Shown here one piece after another: positions 1-10,429 of a stretch of 64,000 nucleotides of DNA. Origin of the DNA: Sneathiella sp. HT1-7 (lineage in GTDB: Bacteria; Pseudomonadota; Alphaproteobacteria; Sneathiellales; Sneathiellaceae). How positions within the stretch are numbered: the first letter of the stretch is position 1; each line of letters begins with the position of its first letter. A program made the position numbers and the translations under genes. The notes beneath the pieces were generated by a model. That model searched no databases. It was not told where the DNA came from and saw nothing but the letters and a program-made list of their open reading frames with translations. The DNA lies in assembly GCF_020731145.1 (NCBI RefSeq), contig NZ_JAJFZN010000006.1, positions 1 to 64,000 on the forward strand, written 5' to 3'.

Positions 1-41
1 ACCGGAAGGACATCAAACCCCTTCCAGAAAAACAAAATTAC

Positions 42-121
<80 letters not shown>

Positions 122-227
122 AAAACGCCGCTATATCAATCAGTTAGGTGGGTTTTTGCGTTAACGGAGAAAGCAAATAAATCATTAACGGAAGCTATTT
201 GGAAGCAGGGGAAAGCTGAAAAAGTAG

Positions 228-416
228 CGTACAGGTGTAGCGCGTGAAGCCTTCAAAGAGGCCCCATATTACATCATAAAATCTGTTCAACAGAACGTAC
301 TTGCACTGAATATCCGCAATGAGCTAGAAAGAAATGGCAAATTTATAGATTTTGAAACCTTAAATGTAGCGCCACCAAGTGGCGCGGGATACATCACTGA
401 TGCTGGTTTGGGTTGA
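228..416 (+). pseudogene. Possible 5'-truncated gene remnant
   Basis: An open frame without an ATG runs 62 codons from just after a stop at 225-227 to TGA. It encodes a protein-like stretch (PYYIIKSVQQNVLALNIRNE near its middle), then a tail that overlaps the 3' end of the opposing nuclease gene. I do not recognise the family. It may be the end of a gene cut when the element was assembled, or chance; support is weak. Confidence 0.2.
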
Positions 417-1472
417 TCCTGTAAGCATCCCCTCCTCGAGACTCTTCTTAATCAGATTTCCTTTTGAACTTCCGTTATCGTGGACTTCGTAAATCACGCC
501 AGTGGGAGTCTTCTCAAATCGTGCATAGGGGTCATCGAAGTCCTTCAGCTCAGGTATTTCTAGTTTGATTGTATTCTTATTTCCGTGAGCTTGAGCCGGA
601 TTAAGGCCATGAATGGCTCCAGATTGTACGCTCACAACGTTATCAATACCTTTGAAGAACTTCTCCGACACGCGAAACGGAATTTGTGTTTGGGTACCTC
701 TGGCCTTACGCAGCCGCATCAAGATAGCTGTTCCGGTTGGATCGGCCTCTACGCTATCAGCAGCCATTGAATCAGAGGACGCCGGTAGTTTGCCGGATTC
801 GTCGGCTTTTTTCTTTCGCCCAGGTGGTGAATAGGTCCGTGTCCCAAAAAGCTTCTCAGATTCTGATCCGTCCGACCGTTTTTTTGATTTTCTATGTGGT
901 ATTCTAACTTCTGCTTCTTCCTTAATGTATCCATTATCGTGAAGCTTATCTAAGGTAGTCTCATCGAGACGAATAACCAATTTGCTGGATGTATCGCACC
1001 ATGATGTAATCGCATCCGCCGCGCTCTCGATAACGTCATTGGTTAGCTCGGTATCAAGTTGTAAGCCAGCTTCAACATTAGAGAAAAGTCCTGACTCCGT
1101 TAAATTATTTGAGCCTACAATCAATCTAGCCTCTTCGACGTTTCGAAATAAGTAAATCTTGGGATGGAATATGCTTCCCCCCTCATTGTGATAGACATAT
1201 GTTGCACAAGTTCCATGCTTCTCGAGATCAAGGAGCGCCTGAAGACCTTCTTTCGTAGTGTTAAGGAGGTCTATGCCAACGATAAATGACAGTTGGCCTC
1301 CATGGGCAAGGAAGCGAGTAAAGCTGTCTTCCAGATAGTTGACGCCGGAAGCACGCACCCAAGCGACAGCTATGTCAAGAAAATCCCAGAATGGTTCAAT
1401 GCCTTTTCTTTCGTCGATATGCTTCAGCAATTCTGTGCCAAAACGGATCGAAAGTGGCTGATTGTAAAACAT
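360..1472 (-). CDS. PLD-fold restriction endonuclease, BfiI-like
   Basis: The 370-aa protein has one phospholipase-D half-site: HPK at residues 103-105, GSNN at 120-123, then Glu134 in a GLFSNVE segment. BfiI, a metal-independent type IIS enzyme of about 358 aa, uses His105, Lys107, Asn125 and Glu136, so the spacing is the same. As in BfiI, the active site would form across a homodimer. Residues about 245-370 are a separate basic/beta-rich domain, possibly a B3-like DNA-binding domain (inference). A Lys/Arg/Ser-rich linker lies at about 185-240. It starts 24 bp after the SPPY methylase gene on the same strand, with GAGGGG just upstream of the ATG. It could also be an NgoFVII-type nuclease. 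The PLD assignment is firm; the restriction role comes from context. Confidence 0.8.
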   Translation of the reverse strand: MFYNQPLSIRFGTELLKHIDERKGIEPFWDFLDIAVAWVRASGVNYLEDSFTRFLAHGGQLSFIVGIDLLNTTKEGLQALLDLEKHGTCATYVYHNEGGSIFHPKIYLFRNVEEARLIVGSNNLTESGLFSNVEAGLQLDTELTNDVIESAADAITSWCDTSSKLVIRLDETTLDKLHDNGYIKEEAEVRIPHRKSKKRSDGSESEKLFGTRTYSPPGRKKKADESGKLPASSDSMAADSVEADPTGTAILMRLRKARGTQTQIPFRVSEKFFKGIDNVVSVQSGAIHGLNPAQAHGNKNTIKLEIPELKDFDDPYARFEKTPTGVIYEVHDNGSSKGNLIKKSLEEGMLTGSTQTSISDVSRATWWRYI

Positions 1473-1496
1473 TTTCCCCTCGATTTTTGCACAAAA

Positions 1497-2420
1497 TTAG
1501 ACTAATGGCAGATTTTTGTCGTCTGCTTCTTCTATCGGCAAGTAGGGCACCACGTTCTCAATTCCATCCATCAACTCGCTGTATGGCTTCACCTTAGCAC
1601 CAGTCGTCTTCTTATGGCTCGGCTTGGAAAATATTAGAATATATTCATGGACGTTCTTGAATAAGAAATTAGGCGGGTATGGATAGCTGCCAAAAATTGG
1701 TCTTTGTGCCCCAAAAGATCCCCATTTCCCACCGGTTCCATCTTTCGACCAAATGATTTCATTGATCATAACAAATCCTAGGCTCCGTAAAAGTACAGCA
1801 AAGTCTGTCGCCAAAGGGAAAGTAAGAAGACCATGATTAGTTTGTTGGTTTACGTTTGCAGTAACGACACACATTTTACGTCCGGGTGCTAATACACGAT
1901 AGCATTCTTCAAATACCGGCCGGATTCCATTTAGAAATTCTCTATAGTTTGGTATATTACCGAGGTTGCTTTCGCCGTCACCGTAGTCGGCTTTGTCCCA
2001 ATAAGGTGGGCTAGTTATCACGAGACCAACGCTGTCATTGGCTACTGAATTCATATTCCTGCTGTCGCCTTCAATGGTAGTCAGTGGTACAAAATTATCA
2101 GCATGCCCATTACGCAGGTGTTTGCATTCCCTCTCTATGATTTTGACATATTCAGGATTTTGTTCGATGCAGATAGTACTTCGACCAAGCGGTATAGCTG
2201 CCTTTGCAGTTGTCCCTGCACCAGCGAACGGATCAAGTACTGTTTCACCATAGAAGCTGAAGAGTTTAGTAAGTCGATGCGGTATCTCAATCGGAAAAGC
2301 AGCAGGGTGGCCCTTGTGAGCCTTATTCGCTATTGCCCAAACGGTTTTTGTATATTCACGCCATTCCTCTTTCGTAAGCTTGCTCTTCTCCTTTATCTCC
2401 GGCGAGATTTTTTTGGTCAT
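1497..2420 (-). CDS. SPPY-type DNA methyltransferase (m4C or m6A)
   Basis: The 307-aa protein carries SAM-binding motif I DPFAGAGT (residues 63-70) and catalytic motif IV SPPY (137-140). Motif X-like sequence lies before motif I and the probable target-recognition region follows motif IV. This order differs from the common beta-class order, in which SPPY comes first. SPPY enzymes methylate the exocyclic amine of cytosine or adenine; the base cannot be told from sequence. The 5' end overlaps the upstream NPPY methylase by 65 bp and the nuclease follows 24 bp downstream, so the three genes form one operon. It probably protects one strand of the nuclease's site. Confidence 0.88.
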   Translation of the reverse strand: MTKKISPEIKEKSKLTKEEWREYTKTVWAIANKAHKGHPAAFPIEIPHRLTKLFSFYGETVLDPFAGAGTTAKAAIPLGRSTICIEQNPEYVKIIERECKHLRNGHADNFVPLTTIEGDSRNMNSVANDSVGLVITSPPYWDKADYGDGESNLGNIPNYREFLNGIRPVFEECYRVLAPGRKMCVVTANVNQQTNHGLLTFPLATDFAVLLRSLGFVMINEIIWSKDGTGGKWGSFGAQRPIFGSYPYPPNFLFKNVHEYILIFSKPSHKKTTGAKVKPYSELMDGIENVVPYLPIEEADDKNLPLV

Positions 2421-4563
2421 TCTGGATTCTTTCCTCTTGAATTTCTTGGTTCGGCATAAATAGTTCAGCGGACGTTATTGTTTTGGTGAAGCGTTCGAGC
2501 TCGTTTGAAAGCAACCTCGGCTGGTTTAGCGAGGCAAGTACAATGTTGTCAACTCTGCGTCTTAGATCGGGTGCCGCAGCTGCCGAAAAAGTATAAGAAA
2601 CCCGCCCCCGGTTCAGGCTTCGAACGGGGTTCTTGACTGCTAAATTCCATATTTCACGGCCAAGTCTCGCGAGTTGGTCAATATTTGTTTCCGACATTGT
2701 TAGGCGCCCGATCGGTAAATTGACCAGCGTGGCACGATTTACATGGAAACCATCGCCCCAAACGTGCCACCACCAATAAGCAAAATTTCCGGAAAGGATA
2801 GCGAAAGCCGCATCCGCATCTTTGCTCGATCCACAAGTTAGACGTATTAGAGGATTGGTTGACAGAGCTTCATTCTCGTTGGTCGTCAATACACAGACCC
2901 TCCCAATCCCCAAGAAATTGTATGCAGTGGGTGATACAAATACATTGGTCATACTACCGAACGGCACTGTATCCAAGGTCGTTCTGTCCCATTGTGGTAC
3001 TAAGTGACCCAATCGAACGGGTTCGTTCGATACTTGCTCGAAGAGCTCAGCATGGATAGTACCGTGAATTTTTGGGATGCCTGCTCGAATATCTCCCCGG
3101 ATACGCGTATAGCAAATGTTCTGGAGCATTTTTTGCCGATCATATCCTCTCCATTTGCGAAGTGGGCCCGAAAATATCTTTTTCGATTGCCTTTGATTTT
3201 GCCAAAGCAGAATAGCGTTTCTTGTTTTTACATCCTCACCGAAGAGAGCATGAGGCTGTCGATCAAAAAATGAGAATTTCCATGTCCCGCTTTTTTCCTG
3301 AATAAAGGCTCTACATGCAGCGAATTGAGTACCAGAATTATATGCAATCGAAAGAGGTACGACCATCGCCCCAACCCCTTCTGAAGCACACAGTCTAACC
3401 ATTTGTTCTATAAATACTGGATATAAATCGGCAGTCGGTTTCGGTTTCGCAGCGATTGAGCGAAACCGATTAGCCAACTCGGTTACGTCATCCCGAATAC
3501 CTATGCCAGCATAAGGAGGATTCCCAATAACTAAATCAAAACCGTCTTTTGCAGCAGGAAAAATATCATTTAAGAGGATCCGACCTTCCTGCTCTCCAAA
3601 CTCAGCTTCTTTGTCGATTAATAGCGCATCACAATTTTTGAGGTTGCGACGGAGCATTGTCCAAGCCGCCATTGGTGATGGCATTACCTCTACGGCACTC
3701 TCTATAGTATCGAGTAATAGAACGCTCGCGGCCCCATCCAGCGCCAAAGGATCAATATCACAGCCAAAAAGTGTTTCGGATGCAAGTTTAAAAGCATTTA
3801 TGCTTGGGTTGTTTTTTTTCTGTACTGCGAGCACAGCTCGTAAAAAGACACCAGTTCCGACTGCGGGATCGAGCACCTTTGGGTGTTGAAAGCCTTCAAA
3901 TCTCTCCATGGCCGATCTTGCCATAAAGTTTGCTACATCCAGTGGCGTGTAAAACACTCCTTCATTTTTCTTTTTGGTTCGTGATTTCTGGGTGCTTGGG
4001 TTTCGTTTAACACTTAATCGGGACCCCGGTCCGTGCGATTCCAATATATAAGGTAAAAGCTCCCTAATACCGGAACATCGAGAAATTGCTTCAAGTTCTT
4101 GACTCAGAGTATTGTCCATTAAACACCAAAAGGAGTATTCTGCAGAGCTTAATGGCCTGCCCAAGGACCATGCCTCAGAATGGGATAGTCGATCTTTCGC
4201 CTTTATGCACTTCCCTGCAAGAGCAACAAGCCAAATGGAGAAAGATAACCACGCTACTCTCTTGTATTCATGCTTCATTTGAACTGGAATGCCGCGATTT
4301 ATCATAGTGGGATGAGCTGCAAAAGCCTCGCTCAGCGACGTGACTATACGGCGCCCATTTTTAGCAACTTCTTCGACAGCTGTCGAAAGGACGTACCCAC
4401 GCCGAGGCTCGCCATGGAAGCATTGCTTGCCTGCGGCTGCCGACTCCATTCTGGCAACTAACTCAATTTGTTGAAGGGGTTGTTTTTCCATACTCAACAG
4501 CTTTTTCTCCTGAGAGGTTAAGCCAATACTGCAGCACGAATTGCTCATGCCAAAGACACCCAT
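2356..4563 (-). CDS. Eco57I-like N6-adenine DNA methyltransferase
   Basis: The 735-aa protein has a helical N-terminal region (about 1-195), then FYTP (204-207), motif I LDPAVGTG (231-238) and motif IV NPPY (348-351), typical of N6-adenine methylases of the Eco57I/HsdM type. A long C-terminal region (about 450-735) with FGSMTNVFVSPTAYNF would be the target-recognition part. I see no PD-(D/E)XK nuclease motif at the N-terminus, so it is probably methylase only. It is the first gene of the three-gene operon. The start is uncertain: Met1, Met6 and Met25 are all possible and none has a strong ribosome-binding site. Confidence 0.85.
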   Translation of the reverse strand: MGVFGMSNSCCSIGLTSQEKKLLSMEKQPLQQIELVARMESAAAGKQCFHGEPRRGYVLSTAVEEVAKNGRRIVTSLSEAFAAHPTMINRGIPVQMKHEYKRVAWLSFSIWLVALAGKCIKAKDRLSHSEAWSLGRPLSSAEYSFWCLMDNTLSQELEAISRCSGIRELLPYILESHGPGSRLSVKRNPSTQKSRTKKKNEGVFYTPLDVANFMARSAMERFEGFQHPKVLDPAVGTGVFLRAVLAVQKKNNPSINAFKLASETLFGCDIDPLALDGAASVLLLDTIESAVEVMPSPMAAWTMLRRNLKNCDALLIDKEAEFGEQEGRILLNDIFPAAKDGFDLVIGNPPYAGIGIRDDVTELANRFRSIAAKPKPTADLYPVFIEQMVRLCASEGVGAMVVPLSIAYNSGTQFAACRAFIQEKSGTWKFSFFDRQPHALFGEDVKTRNAILLWQNQRQSKKIFSGPLRKWRGYDRQKMLQNICYTRIRGDIRAGIPKIHGTIHAELFEQVSNEPVRLGHLVPQWDRTTLDTVPFGSMTNVFVSPTAYNFLGIGRVCVLTTNENEALSTNPLIRLTCGSSKDADAAFAILSGNFAYWWWHVWGDGFHVNRATLVNLPIGRLTMSETNIDQLARLGREIWNLAVKNPVRSLNRGRVSYTFSAAAAPDLRRRVDNIVLASLNQPRLLSNELERFTKTITSAELFMPNQEIQEERIQNDQKNLAGDKGEEQAYERGMA

Positions 4564-5083
4564 TGGTTCATTAAGATTGATTCGGGTTCCGATATTTCTC
4601 GTCTTTCTAACATCACAATTGTACGACGTTTGTATTTAGCGCTTCCTCATTTTTGGTATAATTTGCATGATATGAATCATGGCTGACTTTGCTTCAGATC
4701 GATGCAAATCGCAACAACATTTTGTATCAAAAATGAGATGGCCTACCAAATAAGGGCTATATTCTGGGAGAAACGTACTTTGACTAGGCTGCTAAAATGA
4801 TCCTGTAAGTCGGGCAGAGTAACAAGTTGTGTCTCGATATGGAGTTTGGACACGCAAACGATGAAGAGACGTAGATTCTCAGGCAAGTTCAAATCCACTG
4901 TCGTTCTTGTGGCAAGAATGCATAAGAGAAAGTTGCCAGCCCAACGCTACATCACTTAGAGTAGTCGGCCGCCAAAGCCCATGTCGCCATTTTTTAGAAA
5001 TATTATTTTATAGCTTCAGCGAATGTATGCTTTAGATCAAAAAAGGGAAGTCACTAATTTAAACACGACTGATTCATTATCAT
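4564..5083. other. 520-bp AT-rich spacer in the element
   Basis: No full gene is seen. It must hold the promoter of the leftward methylase-nuclease operon near 4564-4680, which is very AT-rich, and it contains a decayed IS3 orfA fragment at 4861-4959. The remainder shows no recognisable structure. Confidence 0.6.
4861..4959 (+). pseudogene. Remnant of IS3-family transposase OrfA
   Basis: An ATG opens a 32-codon frame beginning MKRRRFSGKFKSTVVLVA. This resembles the conserved N-terminus of IS3/IS911-group OrfA (KRRRFSxEFKxxVxLxA), a helix-turn-helix protein. The following codons do not match and a stop comes soon after. In the next frame, EKVAS at about 4928-4942 may be the remains of the downstream segment, suggesting a frameshift or small deletion. 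No OrfB and no terminal inverted repeats were found. Confidence 0.45.
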
Positions 5084-6322
5084 TTAGAGCCGCACTCTTT
5101 CTCTTCCCGGAATAGGTTTTGGATGAGCTTTCCTTGGAGGAATGTCTGATTTGACCCGGTTACCCGTTTGGTGTTGAGTTTTAAAAATTAGCCTATTTTG
5201 CGCCCTATCTCTGCTTTCAAAGAAGCGAGTATCAGGGGTGTTGATTATATTCGATATGGTTTGCCCAATATCCCTGCCCAATGTTTCCCTAATTTCTTCC
5301 TCTTCTAGTTCCAGCACAACCGCTAGCCCAGCGGCATTGCCGGTAATCTGTTGCATGTAAGTTTCGGCCTGCTGTTCCCGGAATACTTCCCGGACTTGTC
5401 CGGGAACAAGCCCTGAGCGATAATCGGTGAGCTTCTTTGAAAGACATTCCATTGCGGATAACCATAATGGATGCATACGCTGCCGCGTGACATTGCCGTC
5501 TGTCTGGAAGTCATCGAGATAACGCACTTTCTCAACGGCATCATTGAACACATCTCCAATCGAGTTTTCGAGATCGGTAAAGGTCCGGATGTTCCATTTG
5601 TCCTTGAGCTCCTTCTTTCCGGCTCTCAGTTCAACCCGCCAGATATTTTTCGTCGTATCCTTGGGGTCTATTTCCCAAACCTTGAACCAGTAGTAGGTTC
5701 GCTGCTCAATGGCGGCTTTTCGCTTGTTATAAACGATCGCCTGCCGCCCCGGCATCTTGCCAACGGTCACAGCCCCGATACGTCGCCCCTGAAAGACGAG
5801 CGACGGGGTATTGGGGTCCGGTTCTTCTTTCGGGTCAAAATAAGGCTTGACCTTGGAGCGATGATGCGTGACGAATTGCATATGATTGAGTTCGAAGGTT
5901 TCCGGCATGAGAAAATCCATGGCGAAATCCACACGCCGGATACTCTCTATCCCAAACCGGCATCCCATATCTTTTAGTGTGTGTAAAAACCGTTCCTTGG
6001 TTTCCTGATAGCTATAGCAGGCGAGGGCGCTTGCATGGGGTTTGACGGCAATATTCCATTTGCTAGGATCAGCAGTGTCCTTGAAGTTCCATATATCCCC
6101 CGTAGGTCCAGTATCGAACAGGAACGCATAACCGCCGGTCAGGCCGTGGGACGCAATATGTCCTGCGACGTTACCGGGGCCGATTGTCACCAATTGCCGC
6201 TCCTGCTGTTTCGCCGCTTCCTGCTTGGCTTCGCGAAAGACTTCCAAAACCTCAATTGGCAAGGCTCCCAGAAAGGCGACTTCGATGGTGTCGAAACCTG
6301 CATAGAGTTGTTTGATCTTCAT
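5084..6322 (-). CDS. Rep_trans-like replication initiation protein
   Basis: The 412-aa protein starts with GFDTIEVAF, contains RRVDFAMDF (about 135-143) and a YNKRKAAIE ... WRVELRAGK block (about 203-238). This pattern of an acidic beta strand, Tyr-Asn-Lys and WRVELR resembles the Rep_trans/MobT rolling-circle initiator superfamily. These nick one strand at a double-strand origin through a tyrosine and start replication or transfer of plasmids and integrative elements. AGGAG lies 7 nt before the ATG. The 200 bp upstream contains four stem-loops, a likely target. Relaxase versus replicase cannot be decided. Confidence 0.6.
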   Translation of the reverse strand: MKIKQLYAGFDTIEVAFLGALPIEVLEVFREAKQEAAKQQERQLVTIGPGNVAGHIASHGLTGGYAFLFDTGPTGDIWNFKDTADPSKWNIAVKPHASALACYSYQETKERFLHTLKDMGCRFGIESIRRVDFAMDFLMPETFELNHMQFVTHHRSKVKPYFDPKEEPDPNTPSLVFQGRRIGAVTVGKMPGRQAIVYNKRKAAIEQRTYYWFKVWEIDPKDTTKNIWRVELRAGKKELKDKWNIRTFTDLENSIGDVFNDAVEKVRYLDDFQTDGNVTRQRMHPLWLSAMECLSKKLTDYRSGLVPGQVREVFREQQAETYMQQITGNAAGLAVVLELEEEEIRETLGRDIGQTISNIINTPDTRFFESRDRAQNRLIFKTQHQTGNRVKSDIPPRKAHPKPIPGRERVRL

Positions 6323-6354
6323 GGTTACGCTCCTTTACGTTTAAGTAATTCTAG

Positions 6355-6501
6355 AGGGGGGTGTTACAAAGACCCCCCTTTAACGGAACTGTTCCGTTGG
6401 TTTGTGATTATCTGTTTAGTGGTTTGGCGCGCTCCGCGCCGGGGAAGCTTTTAGGGGTTTTGGGGCGGGGCGAGGGGGTGCTGCTTGCGCCGCAGCCCCT
6501 C
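6355..6501. repeat. Cluster of four stem-loops, candidate origin
   Basis: Four inverted repeats lie within 150 bp upstream of the Rep-like gene. AGGGGGGT pairs with ACCCCCCT (6355-6379). AACGGAAC and GTTCCGTT form a perfect 8-1-8 palindrome (6382-6398). GGCGCG pairs with CGCGCC (6426-6440). A bulged G-rich stem spans 6472-6501. Such density next to an initiator gene is typical of a rolling-circle origin or oriT. Function is inferred from position. Confidence 0.5.
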
Positions 6502-6537
6502 ACAGCCTCAACTTACCAAGTCTGCGGATAAAGCGGG

Positions 6538-6786
6538 TTAGCTCCCGGCAAACTGTGACGTGTTGGCGACCAGCAAAGACTCTGCCCAGGAAATGAGATC
6601 GCGGCGGCGGTAGCGGATGGAACGGGAGGAGACTTTGACAAAATCCGGGCCGCCCCCGCGTACCCGCCAGTTCTGCAAAGCCCGGACGGTGTAGCCCAGA
6701 AACTTCGCGGCTTCGGTTTCATTAATCAGGCTGTCGTAATAAGCCTGACTTTCGGGACGATCATTCGGGATAGTATTAACGTTCAT
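6538..6786 (-). CDS. AlpA/excisionase-like HTH protein
   Basis: A small protein of 82 aa, taking the start at MNVNTIPN with AAGGA upstream (a start 21 bp earlier is possible). The core INETEAAKFLGYTVRALQNW followed by RRRDLISW is a MerR-superfamily winged helix of the AlpA/Xis type (helix-turn-helix, then a beta wing with RYRR). In integrated elements such proteins act as excisionase or as activator of the integrase and rep genes. It lies upstream of rep on the same strand, consistent with that role. Confidence 0.75.
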   Translation of the reverse strand: MNVNTIPNDRPESQAYYDSLINETEAAKFLGYTVRALQNWRVRGGGPDFVKVSSRSIRYRRRDLISWAESLLVANTSQFAGS

Positions 6787-6871
6787 GGTATCAAATCCTT
6801 CGTACATGTTATCGAATGACCTGAATATCGCTAACGCCGTCTTTTGATAAAACTCCCCAACTGTTTTAAAT

Positions 6872-6898
6872 AAACCCTAGGCTTTGAGCCTTGGGTTT
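6872..6898 (-). terminator. Strong hairpin, possible terminator
   Basis: AAACCCTAGGC and GCCTTGGGTTT form an 11-bp stem with one mismatch and a 5-nt loop. It is flanked by A/T-rich sequence on both sides, so it could act in either direction between the HTH gene and the coiled-coil protein gene. Confidence 0.45.
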
Positions 6899-6935
6899 AA
6901 TTTCTTTTAAAAACAAGGGCTTGAGATTCAAGAAA

Positions 6936-6978
6936 ATTAAACCCCAGACTATGAAAAGGTAAAAGTCCGGGGTTTAAT
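6936..6978 (-). terminator. Rho-independent terminator after the coiled-coil gene
   Basis: ATTAAACCCCAGACT (6936-6950) and AGTCCGGGGTTTAAT (6964-6978) pair over 15 bp with one mismatch and a 13-nt loop. Read leftward, the stem overlaps the stop codon of the gene ending at 6974 and is followed by TTTTC. It repeats the motif GGGTTTAATTTC seen in the neighbouring hairpin. Confidence 0.65.
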
Positions 6979-7873
6979 TTCCCGGCCGCCCCTGTTTCTT
7001 CCAATGGGAAGGTGCATGATCTTTCCAGACGTCATCGAACATATTGCGAGTGAGATCAGGAATTTCGGTATTCATTGCCTGCCAGCAATCATCCTTTTTT
7101 ATTCTCTTATGTGTTTCCGTTAGCTTCGTAATAAGTCGGATGGCCTGTTCCTTTATTGTCAGGATTTCCGGCTCACTTTCAACAAGAGGCTGAAGCGTTA
7201 TCAGCCATTGCTCAAAGGATGTTTTCGAAACAAAGACAGGAGCATCCCCGCGCGTGCTGTATTCGGGCGGTGCGGTGGCAAGGGAAAGAGATACGGAAGT
7301 TTCAAAACTCTCATAGCCGCGCCAGAGCTTCCAGTCGATGATCTGGTCCAGCCCGAACAGCGCCTTTATCTTTTTATCGGCAAAGCCAGAGAACAGAATT
7401 TCCCGGGTCTGCTGCCCGCGCTGATATTGCTCATAATCGGCAATCAGGGTTTCCCGGTAGGAGGGCAGGGCGCTTTTGCGGTTGAAAAGCTCCTGCTCCT
7501 GTTTTTGGAGCTCGAACAGTCGCTGGTCAATCTGCTGTTTCTCCGGTCCCCTTTCCAGTCTGCCGCCCTTCTGAAAAAGCGCCGTCTTTTCAAGCCCTAT
7601 CGTATCGAGCTGGTCATCCAGTTCGCTATGCCGGGTTTTCAGAAAGTCCGGATCATCGGACGGCGAAGCGAAAGCTTCCATGCCCGTCCAATCGTTTCGA
7701 TACAAATGACGCCCGAGCCGATCGAATGCCTGCAAGAGGAAATAATGGTTATCGAGATCGAATTTGAGCGGCATGGGATTAAACCCTTCTGGATAAACAA
7801 CGTAATTGAGAGGGAATAACCCATAAGGGAAAGAGGCGGAAAAATAAACCACTGGCGCATCCCAGCGTGTCAA
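6974..7873 (-). CDS. Coiled-coil protein of unknown function
   Basis: The 299-aa protein is not one I recognise. Residues about 85-150 are rich in Glu, Gln, Leu and Lys (a KQQIDQRLFELQKQEQELF stretch), predicting a coiled coil. The C-terminal third (about 240-295) is basic and helical. There is no signal peptide, membrane segment or known motif. The reading frame opens with TTG at 7873 and AAGGGAA directly before it; Met33 is an alternative start. It sits between the mer cassette and the rep/xis genes, so it may be an element housekeeping gene. Confidence 0.6.
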   Translation of the reverse strand: MTRWDAPVVYFSASFPYGLFPLNYVVYPEGFNPMPLKFDLDNHYFLLQAFDRLGRHLYRNDWTGMEAFASPSDDPDFLKTRHSELDDQLDTIGLEKTALFQKGGRLERGPEKQQIDQRLFELQKQEQELFNRKSALPSYRETLIADYEQYQRGQQTREILFSGFADKKIKALFGLDQIIDWKLWRGYESFETSVSLSLATAPPEYSTRGDAPVFVSKTSFEQWLITLQPLVESEPEILTIKEQAIRLITKLTETHKRIKKDDCWQAMNTEIPDLTRNMFDDVWKDHAPSHWKKQGRPGN

Positions 7874-8003
7874 TTCCCTTACGGGATAATGTGAAACGTT
7901 CCCATACGAGTTTGAGTCAAGGAGCGCATAGATTGGGAGATAATTCCTTGGAAACGGTTCGTATCGTTACGTAGAGGGGCATCTATCTATTTCATGGGCA
8001 TGA

Positions 8004-8408
8004 TCAGGCATTCTCGTAAAGAATATCGATAACCGGGCAGTCCGTCGCGATTCCGCCCGCGCATTTATCGGCGGCGCTTTCAAGCACGGAGCGCAGCCGG
8101 ATCAACTCTTCAATCTTCCTGTTGATTTCTTTCAGATGCCTGACGGTGACGGACTGCACTTGTTCGCATGTTTTATCATTGCCGATCAAGGATAAGAGCT
8201 GGCGTATTTCGCTGATTGAAAACCCGAGTGCCCGTGACCGCATGATAAAGGCCAGCTGCCTCAAATGATCATGCGAATAGCTCCGATGCCCGCCATTGCT
8301 TCGCGGCGGCTCCGGGATCAGTCCAATACGTTCGTAATATCGTATCGTTTCGATATTGCAGCCGGTTTCCCGGGACAGAGCGCCGATGCCAAAGTTTTTT
8401 ATGCTCAT
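8004..8408 (-). CDS. merR: MerR-family mercury-responsive regulator
   Basis: The 134-aa protein has the MerR winged helix (FGIGALSRETGCNIETIRYY, then GGHRSY), a long dimerisation helix and three cysteines, C81, C116 and C124. Their positions match the Hg(II) ligands of Tn501 MerR (82, 117 and 126) with a slightly shorter final loop. It is divergent from merF, and the shared promoter has the 19-bp spacer and central dyad that MerR proteins untwist. Binding of another thiophilic metal is possible, but the merF neighbour supports mercury. Confidence 0.87.
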   Translation of the reverse strand: MSIKNFGIGALSRETGCNIETIRYYERIGLIPEPPRSNGGHRSYSHDHLRQLAFIMRSRALGFSISEIRQLLSLIGNDKTCEQVQSVTVRHLKEINRKIEELIRLRSVLESAADKCAGGIATDCPVIDILYENA

Positions 8409-8421
8409 TGTCAGAATTCCC

Positions 8422-8452
8422 TTGTACCTGTAGCGACTACAGATTGTAGCAT
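8422..8452 (+). promoter_or_regulatory. MerR-type promoter/operator of merF
   Basis: A -35 TTGTAC (8422-8427) and -10 TAGCAT (8447-8452) are 19 bp apart, too long for sigma70 alone. A perfect dyad CTGTAG-CGA-CTACAG (8428-8442) fills the spacer. This is the classic MerR layout. The -10 ends only 6 bp before the merF ATG, so the transcript should start at or next to the ATG. Confidence 0.85.
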
Positions 8453-8458
8453 ACGGGG

Positions 8459-8671
8459 ATGCAAGATAAGAACCTGCTTAAAATCGGGATAGTTGGGACG
8501 ATAATAGCGGCGCTCTGTTGCTTTACGCCGCTGCTCGTCATTCTTGCCAGTGCCGTTGGCCTTTCGGCAATTTTGGGAGTGCTTGACATTGTGTTACTGC
8601 CCGCGCTCGCGATATTTATAGGAATTACGGGTTACGCCCTATGGAAACTCAAGTACAAAACATCGAATTGA
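8459..8671 (+). CDS. merF: MerF-like mercuric ion transporter, short form
   Basis: The 70-aa protein has two membrane helices (about 8-28 and 38-62), with vicinal cysteines C20-C21 in the first inside LCCFTPLLV and the family signature VLLPALAIFIGITGYA in the second. MerF carries Hg(II) across the inner membrane. Known MerF proteins have a second Cys pair near the C-terminus; this one ends at KLKYKTSN without it. The 3' end overlaps the next gene by 31 bp. With the -10 box so close, the message is probably leaderless. Confidence 0.85.
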   Translation: MQDKNLLKIGIVGTIIAALCCFTPLLVILASAVGLSAILGVLDIVLLPALAIFIGITGYALWKLKYKTSN

Positions 8672-8886
8672 CCTCGACCCTTACCTGTCCGGAATGCGGG
8701 CACAGCGAAACGGAAACCATGCCGACGGATGCCTGTCAGTGGTTTTATGAATGCAAGGGCTGCGGCCTTCTTCTGAAGCCCAAGGCAGGGGATTGCTGTG
8801 TCTATTGCTCCTATGGGACGGTTCCTTGTCCACCGATACAACAGGGCGGTAACTGTTGCGGAGCCGATGGGGGTGACGCGGATTAA
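8641..8886 (+). CDS. GDCCVxC-domain Cys-rich protein
   Basis: This 81-aa protein holds 11 cysteines: CPEC near the N-terminus, CKGC at mid-length, the signature GDCCVYCSYG, and a terminal NCCG. Members of this family often follow mer transport genes and some homologues are selenoproteins; here all positions are Cys codons. There is no membrane segment, so it is probably a cytoplasmic metal-binding protein. It starts inside the end of merF, implying coupled translation, and could accept Hg(II) from the short MerF (inference). Confidence 0.75.
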   Translation: METQVQNIELTSTLTCPECGHSETETMPTDACQWFYECKGCGLLLKPKAGDCCVYCSYGTVPCPPIQQGGNCCGADGGDAD

Positions 8887-8943
8887 AGCTGACGTTCAGT
8901 CCGGCCATTAGGCACCGGTTTAATCCCTGCCAAAGCAGTTATT

Positions 8944-8960
8944 GGGAAAATCATTTTCCC
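8944..8960. repeat. 17-bp perfect palindrome
   Basis: GGGAAAAT-C-ATTTTCCC lies between the mer cassette and the 3' end of the integrase gene. It has no T-run on either side, so it is more likely a protein-binding site than a terminator. ACGTTACGATACGTAT-type repeats follow directly. Confidence 0.4.
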
Positions 8961-9017
8961 TATACGTTACGATACGTATCTTTTCGATTCCGCGCCATAC
9001 CAAACAATACGTAAAAA

Positions 9018-10181
9018 TTATGCGATTGCGCCGCCCTTCAGGAGCCTCGCCAGCTCACTCGATACCCGTTCGGCGGCATTCTGCATGGGATCATCGGCGA
9101 GATGGGCATAGCGGGCGGTGGTCTGCACTTGGTTGTGCCCGAGCAGCTTGCCAATCATCGGCAGGCTCTCGCCCGTGCCGACGGCTGTTGACGCAAAGGA
9201 ATGGCGAAGATCATGGAGCCGCACATCTTCCAGCTTGGCGGCTTTACGTATCCGCTGCCATGGCTTCTGCATATCGGTGATATGGGAGCCGGGCAGCTTG
9301 CCGGTGATCACATAGGGGTTATTCTCGATACGCTCGATCCCGGAAAGAACCTCTAAGGCCGCCGGTCCAAGATAAACCCGTTTCGCGCCGGTCTTTGATT
9401 CCGGCAGAAAGGCGGAACTGGCCTTGATGAATTCCCATTTAAGGGTTTGTATCTCGCCAAGGCGGCAACCGGTCAGGATCAACAGGCGAATGCAGTTAAT
9501 CGCCGATTGTGATTCAATGCCTTCTTTTTCCAGATCAATCAGCGTCTGGCCCAGCCGGGAAAGCTCTTCGCCGCTCAAATACCGTTCGCGCTTCTTTTCT
9601 TCATATTTCTTGACATGGCGGCAGGGGTTCGAGTTATCGGGACGCAAGCCCCAGACTTCCGCTTGATTGAACATGACAGAGAGAACGCCCAAGGTCCGGT
9701 TCGCCTGATAGGGCGTGTCCCGGTGCTTGTGATGCAGATCGGCGATATCGCTTCGCTGCACGTCCTCCACCTGCACCACGCCAAAGGCGGGCTTGATAAA
9801 GAGGTCCATGCAGCGCCGGTATTCCTTCGCCGTGCTTTCCCGGCAGTGAGACGGCACATAATCCGACATAAACCGCTCGCAAAGTTCTGACACCAGAGCC
9901 GCCCCGCGCTTGCGCTTGGCCTCCTCGGCAGGGTTTGACCCATGGGCAACGCCCCCAAGCAGCTCACGGGCCTTGTCCTTGGCTTTCTCGGCGGTTACCG
10001 TGCCAAACCGGCCCAGCCCTTTCCGCCGGGTGCGTCCGCCGCCGTCGCGATACTGAATGAGGAAAGTCTTTCGCCCGGACGGCAATACCCGCAGCCCATA
10101 TCCGGGCAGGGTTTCATCCCAGACAAAATAGTCTTTCTCTTTCACCAAAAGGCCGTCAATGGTACGCTTGTTCAGTCTCAT
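9018..10181 (-). CDS. int: Tyrosine integrase of the element
   Basis: A P4-type integrase with an N-terminal DUF4102-like arm-binding domain (DETLPGYGLRVLPSGRKTF), a core-binding SAM-like domain and the catalytic domain. Counting from the upstream Met at 10211, the catalytic residues are R250, H333/R336 (HDLRH), H359 (LLGHN) and Y368. I prefer the start at MRLNKRTIDG (10181), which has GGAAG 6 nt upstream and matches the usual N-terminus. It lies about 170 bp from attR and must recombine the tRNA-fMet site. All catalytic residues are intact, so the element may still be mobile. Confidence 0.95.
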   Translation of the reverse strand: MRLNKRTIDGLLVKEKDYFVWDETLPGYGLRVLPSGRKTFLIQYRDGGGRTRRKGLGRFGTVTAEKAKDKARELLGGVAHGSNPAEEAKRKRGAALVSELCERFMSDYVPSHCRESTAKEYRRCMDLFIKPAFGVVQVEDVQRSDIADLHHKHRDTPYQANRTLGVLSVMFNQAEVWGLRPDNSNPCRHVKKYEEKKRERYLSGEELSRLGQTLIDLEKEGIESQSAINCIRLLILTGCRLGEIQTLKWEFIKASSAFLPESKTGAKRVYLGPAALEVLSGIERIENNPYVITGKLPGSHITDMQKPWQRIRKAAKLEDVRLHDLRHSFASTAVGTGESLPMIGKLLGHNQVQTTARYAHLADDPMQNAAERVSSELARLLKGGAIA

Positions 10182-10295
10182 ATTCGCTTCCATCTCCCAA
10201 TCTGGAAGCATAATGGAAGCAAGTGACAGCGATAATCAAGATATTTATGAGAAGGCAAGAGTAACAGTTACGTAGAATATCATAATTTTAACAAC

Positions 10296-10322
10296 GCTAT
10301 ATGTCTAACCATGCGGCTATAT
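10296..10322. repeat. GCTATAT direct repeats near attR
   Basis: GCTATAT occurs at 10296-10302 and 10316-10322, spaced 20 bp, and again at 130-136 just inside attL. In a circularised element all three lie within about 60 bp of the attachment core, the place for integrase or excisionase arm sites. The motif is short, so this is tentative. Confidence 0.3.
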
Positions 10323-10351
10323 GGTAATCTATGATAACCCACATAAACTAA

Positions 10352-10399
10352 CTCATAACCTGAAGGTCGTAGGTTCAAATCCTACCCCCGCAACCAAAT
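10352..10399 (+). repeat. attR, 48-bp direct repeat
   Basis: This is an exact copy of the tRNA 3' half at 74-121, without the 5' half of the gene. The bases before 10352 belong to the element; those after 10399 are the original chromosome, starting with the displaced tRNA terminator. Confidence 0.93.
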
Positions 10400-10400
10400 T

Positions 10401-10429
10401 AAAAAGGGTCCCTTCAGGGACCCTTTTTT
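10401..10429 (+). terminator. Original tRNA-fMet terminator
   Basis: AAAAAGGGTCCC-TTCA-GGGACCCTTTTTT is a 12-bp perfect stem with a 4-nt loop and a T6 tail, starting two bases after attR. Before integration it would have directly followed the tRNA-fMet gene. Confidence 0.9.

What the first reader, a model, noticed from the sequence alone, without database searches (positions are those of the whole stretch)
360..4563. Three-gene restriction operon pairing a PLD-fold nuclease with two different methylase classes
Seen: the leftward order is Eco57I-like NPPY methylase, SPPY methylase, PLD nuclease, with 65-bp overlap and 24-bp gap. The nuclease has His103, Lys105, Asn123 and Glu134, the same spacing as the BfiI active site. 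Known: BfiI is a metal-independent type IIS enzyme that works with two methylases, both acting on cytosine. Inference: an asymmetric site is methylated on one strand by an N6-adenine enzyme and on the other by an SPPY enzyme (m4C or m6A), and is cut without metal by a homodimer. I know of no well-described system with exactly this mix.
Basis: partly seen in the sequence, partly recalled or inferred. Interest (0 to 1): 0.68.

Follow-up and report, generated by a model that had tools for sequence, protein, structure and literature searches.

The report
BfiI-like nuclease with two DNA methylases
A small mobile DNA element carries a three-gene restriction-modification system in which a nuclease built like the metal-independent enzyme BfiI travels with two different kinds of DNA methylase; it is a good new variant of a known kind of bacterial defence rather than a new kind.

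Summary
On the minus strand lie M1 (735 aa, gamma-order NPPY methylase), M2 (307 aa, SPPY methylase) and R (370 aa), with a 65-nt overlap and a 24-nt gap. R has the BfiI catalytic residues at identical spacing, and BfiI is its best PDB match by sequence and by Foldseek. Its C-terminal domain models as a B3 DNA-binding fold.

All 7 other loci found with a close R carry M1 and M2 directly upstream in the same order; in 2 of the 7, M1 and M2 are one fused ORF. This supports one functional unit.

Most likely it is a type II (IIS-like) system on an asymmetric site: M1 makes m6A on one strand, M2 probably m4C on the other, and R cuts nearby without metal. No chemistry was tested. Mixed m6A/m4C protection of a type IIS site is already known (HpyAII), so what is new is its pairing with a PLD-B3 nuclease.

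The trio is cargo of a 10.3-kb tRNA-Met element; a sibling element in the same genome holds IetAS in the same slot. New variant of a known kind, moderate interest.

The parts
360..1472 (-). R: PLD-B3 restriction endonuclease, 370 aa, ATG start, stop included
1071..1166 (-). R residues 103-134, catalytic stretch HxK...SxN...E, same spacing as BfiI
   Evidence: intact in 6 of the 7 other close R copies (broken reading frame in L042)
363..734 (-). R residues 247-370, predicted B3-like DNA-recognition domain
   Evidence: model pLDDT 89.2; 11 of the 13 entries listed by VIA-align are B3 folds, Z 4.8-8.8
1473..1496 (-). 24-nt gap between M2 stop and R start, with a GAGGGG ribosome-binding-like stretch
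1497..2420 (-). M2: SPPY amino-methyltransferase, 307 aa, probably N4-cytosine, motif I before motif IV
2001..2012 (-). M2 motif IV SPPY (residues 137-140)
2214..2234 (-). M2 motif I DPFAGAG (residues 63-69)
2356..2420 (-). 65-nt overlap of M1 end and M2 start; M2 has its own GAGGAAAG stretch upstream of its ATG
2356..4563 (-). M1: gamma-order N6-adenine-type methyltransferase, 735 aa, Eco57I/N6_Mtase families
3511..3522 (-). M1 motif IV NPPY (residues 348-351)
3943..3960 (-). M1 GVFYTP motif (residues 202-207), before motif I DPAVGTG (232-238)
42..118 (+). tRNA-Met (CAT), integration target of the carrier element
74..125 (+). 52-bp direct repeat, copy 1 (att site, 3' part of the tRNA)
   Evidence: 98%
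10352..10403 (+). 52-bp direct repeat, copy 2, 10,278 bp downstream
9018..10211 (-). tyrosine integrase of the carrier element, 397 aa
   Evidence: PHROG integrase E 9e-63
5084..6322 (-). 412-aa conserved element protein (called Rep-like here by inference; no Pfam family)
6538..6807 (-). 89-aa HTH_17 protein, excisionase-like

Best explanation
It is a mobile type II restriction-modification system of the BfiI architecture. R (shown by sequence and modelling: PLD domain with one HxK...N...E set, then a B3-like domain) is inferred to dimerise through its PLD domains into a single metal-independent active site and to use its B3 domains to find an unmethylated asymmetric sequence, cutting close to it. 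M1 (gamma order, NPPY) is inferred to put m6A on one strand of that sequence and M2 (SPPY) m4C, less likely m6A, on the other, so that both strands of every host site are marked after replication. By analogy with type I systems that need m4C because one half-site has no adenine (PMC4752239 passage), one strand of the site may lack a methylatable adenine. The trio moves as cargo of a small tRNA-Met integrative element and, elsewhere, on a conjugative plasmid or beside Tn3-family transposition genes.
For: Gene order M1-M2-R at 7 of 7 other loci with close R, M1-M2 fused in 2 (fused ORFs of 985-986 aa in Salipiger and Ruegeria). BfiI is the top PDB sequence match, E 0.0013 for R alone and 5.7e-5 for the profile, and the top Foldseek match, E 1.2e-9. 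The C-terminal domain alone models at pLDDT 89.2, and the 11 best of the 13 entries listed are B3 domains (LlaJI.R1 Z 8.8, BfiI 8.7, UbaLAI 8.3), then a drop to 2.9. Catalytic residues are intact in 7 of 8 copies including the window. M1 belongs to Eco57I/N6_Mtase; M2's nearest solved relative is TTHA0409, E 4.3e-44, called a putative beta-class N4-cytosine enzyme in PMC5173035 (passage). Purifying selection on all three. A sibling element holds IetAS in the matching slot.
Against: No cleavage, methylation or site data. R's full model is weak (pLDDT 69.8; residues 121-143, which hold N123 and E134, below 50), and Foldseek on the C-terminal domain alone gave no match with E <= 0.001. SauUSI, an ATP-dependent enzyme, outscores BfiI in the VIA ranking of the PLD domain (Z 15.1 against 13.8), and other defence PLD proteins (ZacB, MkoB, DrmC) match R about as weakly as type II REases do in PADLOC. 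An SPPY motif does not prove m4C. In Paenarthrobacter M1 and M2 homologues go with an unrelated 161-aa third gene, so the methylase pair can exist without this nuclease.
Confidence: 0.76

Rival explanations
1. An ATP-dependent PLD-B3 system like CglI/NgoAVII: R binds its site but cuts only with a helicase/ATPase partner encoded elsewhere.
For: R of NgoAVII (4rct) is among the structural matches (Z 10.1) and SauUSI is the best PLD-domain match (Z 15.1). R.CglI and R.NgoAVII alone do not cut (PMC4267653 passages).
Against: No helicase was recognised next to the trio: Pfam on the ORFs scanned in window 1-8408, the annotated neighbours in Salipiger and the ten neighbours scanned in five relatives. 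CglI and NgoAVII use C5-cytosine methylases, whereas M1 and M2 are amino-methyltransferase families.
Confidence: 0.1
2. M2 is an N6-adenine methylase despite SPPY, so both strands carry m6A.
For: M2's NCBIfam matches, all far below cut-off, include the adenine enzymes PRK11524 and CcrM, and its PDB matches include RsrI and CcrM beside N4-cytosine enzymes. MhoVII has two m6A methylases on one asymmetric site (PMC12898733 passages).
Against: Nearest structure TTHA0409 is described as a putative N4-cytosine enzyme. That SPPY goes mostly with m4C is recalled, not tested here.
Confidence: 0.2
3. The trio is not an asymmetric-site system: M1 and M2 modify unrelated sites, or one methylase is an orphan carried along.
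For: M1 is much less conserved than M2 (pN 0.34 against 0.13, window to Salipiger), so their specificities may drift apart. The pair is retained without R in Paenarthrobacter.
Against: M1-M2 fusion in two relatives and strict order with R at all 7 other close loci; fusion of the two methylases of one asymmetric site is known for GmeI and MhoVII.
Confidence: 0.1
4. R is a PLD effector of another defence type (DISARM DrmC-like or SauUSI-like) rather than a site-specific endonuclease.
For: Weak HMM similarity of the PLD stretch to DrmC, ZacB and MkoB.
Against: R is full length with its own B3-like domain; DrmC scores 18.8 bits against a cut-off of 133; no DISARM helicase or DrmB was recognised in the island ORFs scanned with Pfam.
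Confidence: 0.05

Closest known systems
BfiI / BmrI (type IIS, ACTGGG, PLD-B3 homodimer with two methylases)
   Same: N-terminal PLD with identical catalytic spacing, C-terminal B3-like domain, two methylases
   Different: R shares about 20% identity with BfiI only in the PLD part; BfiI's methylases are both m4C (recalled), here one is a gamma-order NPPY (m6A-type) enzyme
HpyAII (type IIS, GAAGA m6A / TCTTC m4C)
   Same: Two amino-methyltransferases, m6A on one strand and m4C on the other of an asymmetric site (PMC3936762 tables) - the pattern proposed here
   Different: Both HpyAII methylases are beta class; its nuclease was not examined here (not a PLD enzyme as far as I recall)
CglI / NgoAVII R-proteins
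   Same: PLD-B3 architecture, asymmetric GCCGC site for CglI
   Different: Need a helicase/ATPase partner and use a C5-cytosine methylase; neither was found here
GmeI and MhoVII fused methylases
   Same: Two methylases for the two strands of one non-palindromic site in one chain, as in the Salipiger and Ruegeria relatives
   Different: MhoVII marks are both m6A; no PLD nuclease is mentioned in the passages seen
LlaJI (R1 N-terminal domain)
   Same: Best structural match to the C-terminal domain of R (Z 8.8)
   Different: McrBC-like GTP-dependent nuclease and two C5 methylases (recalled)

Membership tests
PLD-B3 restriction endonuclease (BfiI architecture) | PLD domain with HxK, N and E at BfiI spacing | tested here: met
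PLD-B3 restriction endonuclease (BfiI architecture) | one HxK set per chain (composite site in a dimer) | tested here: met
   one HPK motif in R; dimerisation itself not testable here
PLD-B3 restriction endonuclease (BfiI architecture) | C-terminal B3 DNA-binding domain | tested here: met
   prediction only; Foldseek alone without significant match
PLD-B3 restriction endonuclease (BfiI architecture) | metal-independent cleavage | not testable with these tools
   needs purified R and EDTA
BfiI restriction-modification system | asymmetric site cut downstream | not testable with these tools
   site unknown
BfiI restriction-modification system | two methylases, one per strand | tested here: inconclusive
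   two different methylases present and conserved; strand use unknown
BfiI restriction-modification system | both methylases of m4C type (recalled) | tested here: not met
   M1 is in Eco57I/N6_Mtase with NPPY in gamma order; so filed as a variant, not as a BfiI isoschizomer
type IIS system with m6A plus m4C (HpyAII pattern) | one N6-adenine and one N4-cytosine methylase | tested here: inconclusive
   M1 clear by family; M2 SPPY and TTHA0409-like, chemistry untested
CglI/NgoAVII ATP-dependent system | helicase/ATPase partner encoded in the operon | tested here: not met
   none recognised in the window or the neighbours scanned
CglI/NgoAVII ATP-dependent system | C5-cytosine methylase | tested here: not met
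   M1 and M2 are N6/N4 families
DISARM | DrmC equivalog plus drmA/drmB genes | tested here: not met
   DrmC 18.8 bits against cut-off 133; no DISARM core gene among ORFs scanned

The most novel reading that the evidence does not exclude
A distinct mobile restriction family in which a metal-independent PLD nuclease is guided by a B3 domain to a site marked m6A on one strand and m4C on the other, and in which that B3 address module is exchangeable between effectors: in L039 a second, non-PLD protein with the same C-terminal domain sits convergent to R, and in Paenarthrobacter the conserved methylase pair is coupled to an unrelated 161-aa gene. The methylase pair would then be a shared self-mark used by different cutters or binders.
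Probability: 0.17. Interest if true: 0.55.

Novelty: new variant of a known kind. Interest (0 to 1): 0.38.

Why it matters
It adds a clean, widely moved example of the sparsely studied PLD-B3 restriction enzymes with a methylase pairing that I did not find described for them (searches, open-access papers only, mostly listings). Metal-independent enzymes that stay active in EDTA are rare and useful, and m6A/m4C on opposite strands of one site gives a signal readable directly by long-read sequencing. The fused M1-M2 relatives make the strand assignment testable in one construct.

Tried and rejected
Searches that gave little. R alone as query found no relatives in viral contigs or genome contigs and none in phage records; the profile-based scans found them. 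Back-translated patterns use only one or two short stretches, so relatives were surely missed and 7 is a lower bound. The C-terminal domain profile matched only the window's own genome among 385 genomes of the class, and R itself had no full-length relative among the other 397 of 398 genomes of the phylum sample: 14 hits, all partial. M2 hits in all 25 genomes of the order are, apart from the window's own, short matches to ordinary methylases. L044 has M1 and M2 but the contig ends inside M2, so it says nothing about R.

Considered and rejected: that the 161-aa third gene of Paenarthrobacter is a stand-alone copy of R's C-terminal domain (no similarity by BLASTP or hhalign; it is not excluded structurally, as it could not be folded here); that M2's motif order is itself new (it is permuted relative to TTHA0409, but other library families align to it in one piece); that the trio is a DISARM or CglI relative (see membership).

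Results against or dropped: of 15 plasmid records with an R match I looked at 5; of 14 partial genome hits I read wider regions for 6, the other 8 lie in open frames of 833 aa or more and were not followed. The motif search is crude and could miss methylases. L042's R has a broken frame across the catalytic stretch; L040 and L042 come from the same MAG and both R genes run off the contig. dN/dS for L040 against L042 is 0.28, 0.24 and 0.49; the R value is inflated by that frame break.
Full report
What is there. The left end of the window holds three leftward genes. M1 (2356-4563) is 735 aa, in Eco57I (E 1.6e-16) and N6_Mtase (4.4e-14); its motifs run GVFYTP (202), DPAVGTG (232), NPPY (348), the gamma order of N6-adenine enzymes (the class rule is recalled). 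M2 (1497-2420) is 307 aa, in N6_N4_Mtase (5.9e-40), with motif I (63) before SPPY (137). Against its nearest solved relative, TTHA0409, it aligns in two swapped pieces (M2 118-269 to 27-178; M2 4-96 to 181-274), i.e. it is circularly permuted. R (360-1472) is 370 aa. M1 and M2 overlap by 65 nt, and M2 and R are 24 nt apart. Purine-rich stretches precede the M2 and R starts.

The nuclease. R's PLD match is modest by sequence (PLDc_2 27.2 bits against a cut-off of 27), but BfiI is its best PDB match (E 0.0013; profile 5.7e-5), without gap through HxK...N...E, and the spacing equals that of BfiI H105/K107/N125/E136 (PMC4081073 section 39, read in full). The motif is intact in 7 of 8 copies including the window. 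An AlphaFold model from 6 sequences has pLDDT 69.8 and is poor over residues 121-143. Foldseek still puts BfiI first (E 1.2e-9; the two domains are packed differently, rmsd 15), and VIA-align gives SauUSI Z 15.1 (PLD domain only), BfiI 13.8 (both domains) and NgoAVII R 10.1. The last 127 residues modelled alone reach pLDDT 89.2. Foldseek finds nothing with E <= 0.001, but among its 1000 top chains VIA-align ranks LlaJI.R1 (8.8), BfiI (8.7), UbaLAI (8.3), the plant B3 factors FUS3, VAL1, LEC2, NGA1 and VRN1, and EcoRII: 11 of 13 listed entries, then a fall to 2.9 (that LlaJI.R1, EcoRII-N and VRN1 are B3 folds is partly recalled). So R is PLD plus B3, as in BfiI.

The unit. A close R was found at 7 further loci: Salipiger profundus plasmid pTPRO3 (67% identity), an IMG/VR contig (59%), Ruegeria atlantica, an uncultured Rhodobacteraceae, two contigs of one Hasllibacter MAG, and a Chloroflexi MAG. 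HMMs of the three proteins show M1, M2, R colinear at 7 of 7; in Salipiger and Ruegeria M1 and M2 are one ORF of 985-986 aa. M1, M2 and R are under purifying selection, M2 most conserved. Exceptions are told: Paenarthrobacter has M1 (32%) and M2 (64%) with an unrelated 161-aa gene after them, and distant PLD-domain relatives are often not beside methylases.

How it probably works. Two different amino-methyltransferases plus one PLD-B3 nuclease fit an asymmetric recognition sequence with one methylase per strand, as stated for BfiI (PMC4267653 passage) and type IIA enzymes (PMC4081073 passage). M1 as m6A is a family inference. M2 as m4C rests on SPPY (rule recalled) and on TTHA0409 being called a putative N4-cytosine enzyme (PMC5173035 passage). 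A use for the mix is suggested by type I systems, where m4C replaces m6A in a half-site without adenine (PMC4752239 passage). All chemistry is untested.

Against what is known. HpyAII is type IIS with GAAGA m6A and TCTTC m4C (PMC3936762 table passages), so the mixed marks are not new. BceSIII uses two m4C enzymes, and GmeI and MhoVII fuse their two methylases (passages). PLD-type enzymes are described as far from rare, with over 40 putative ones in REBASE. I did not find a description of a PLD-B3 nuclease with an N6-adenine and an SPPY methylase in the searches; these cover open-access papers only and most hits were seen as listings. REBASE could not be searched.

The carrier. A 52-bp repeat of the 3' part of tRNA-Met (74-125; 10352-10403; 98%) bounds 10.28 kb with a tyrosine integrase. 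The trio's GC is 44-46% against 47-56% in the 2-kb bins from 12 kb on. In the same genome contig C6 holds a sibling: integrase 91.5% identical, the 412-aa protein 32% identical, and IetA (E 3e-75) plus IetS (2e-37) in the slot between tRNA and that protein. Contig C4 starts with an uninterrupted copy of the tRNA and terminator. The 412-aa protein occurs in 12 of 25 genomes of the order. Of 8 further regions fetched, L067 carries a Tmn match and L072 Dsr1 matches, L073 has an RT of the III-A type nearby, L069 and L071 carry metal-related genes and L068 an MFS transporter; L070 resembles L069 and L074 was not scanned. This places the trio in a cargo slot often used for defence.

Verdict. It is a new variant of a known kind; the biochemistry remains to be done.

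Noticed in passing
window 1-10403; L052 (G000:C6:1-10000): Two sibling integrative elements at paralogous tRNA-Met genes of one genome share integrase (91.5% aa identity) and a 412/382-aa protein (32%) but carry different cargo in the same slot: the R-M trio and IetAS.
   Followed up: partly
L067, L068, L069, L070, L071, L072, L073, L074: Homologues of the 412-aa element protein occur in 12 of 25 genomes of the order; nearby cargo includes Tmn, Dsr1-like and RT III-A matches as well as cation efflux, multicopper oxidase and MFS genes.
   Followed up: partly
L039 10237-11343 (-): A 369-aa protein convergent to R shares R's C-terminal domain (E 4.8e-30, 41% identity) with a different N-terminal part that has no Pfam or PADLOC match; the N-terminal part resembles a hypothetical protein of Rhizobium sp. 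B230/85.
   Followed up: partly
L037 8824-9309 (+): In a Paenarthrobacter plasmid M1 and M2 homologues are followed by a 161-aa gene without recognisable family in place of the nuclease.
   Followed up: partly
L016 4725-13041; L038 3-3812: In Salipiger and Ruegeria a ribbon-helix-helix gene lies directly upstream of the fused methylase, with resolvase and Tn3-type transposase genes close by; a possible regulator and a transposon carrier.
   Followed up: no
L042 4854-5735: In one of two Hasllibacter MAG contigs the catalytic stretch of R is in another reading frame while the rest of R stays open; inactivation or assembly error.
   Followed up: no
window 1497-2420: M2 is circularly permuted relative to TTHA0409 and is the most conserved of the three genes (64% identity even to an actinobacterial copy).
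   Followed up: partly
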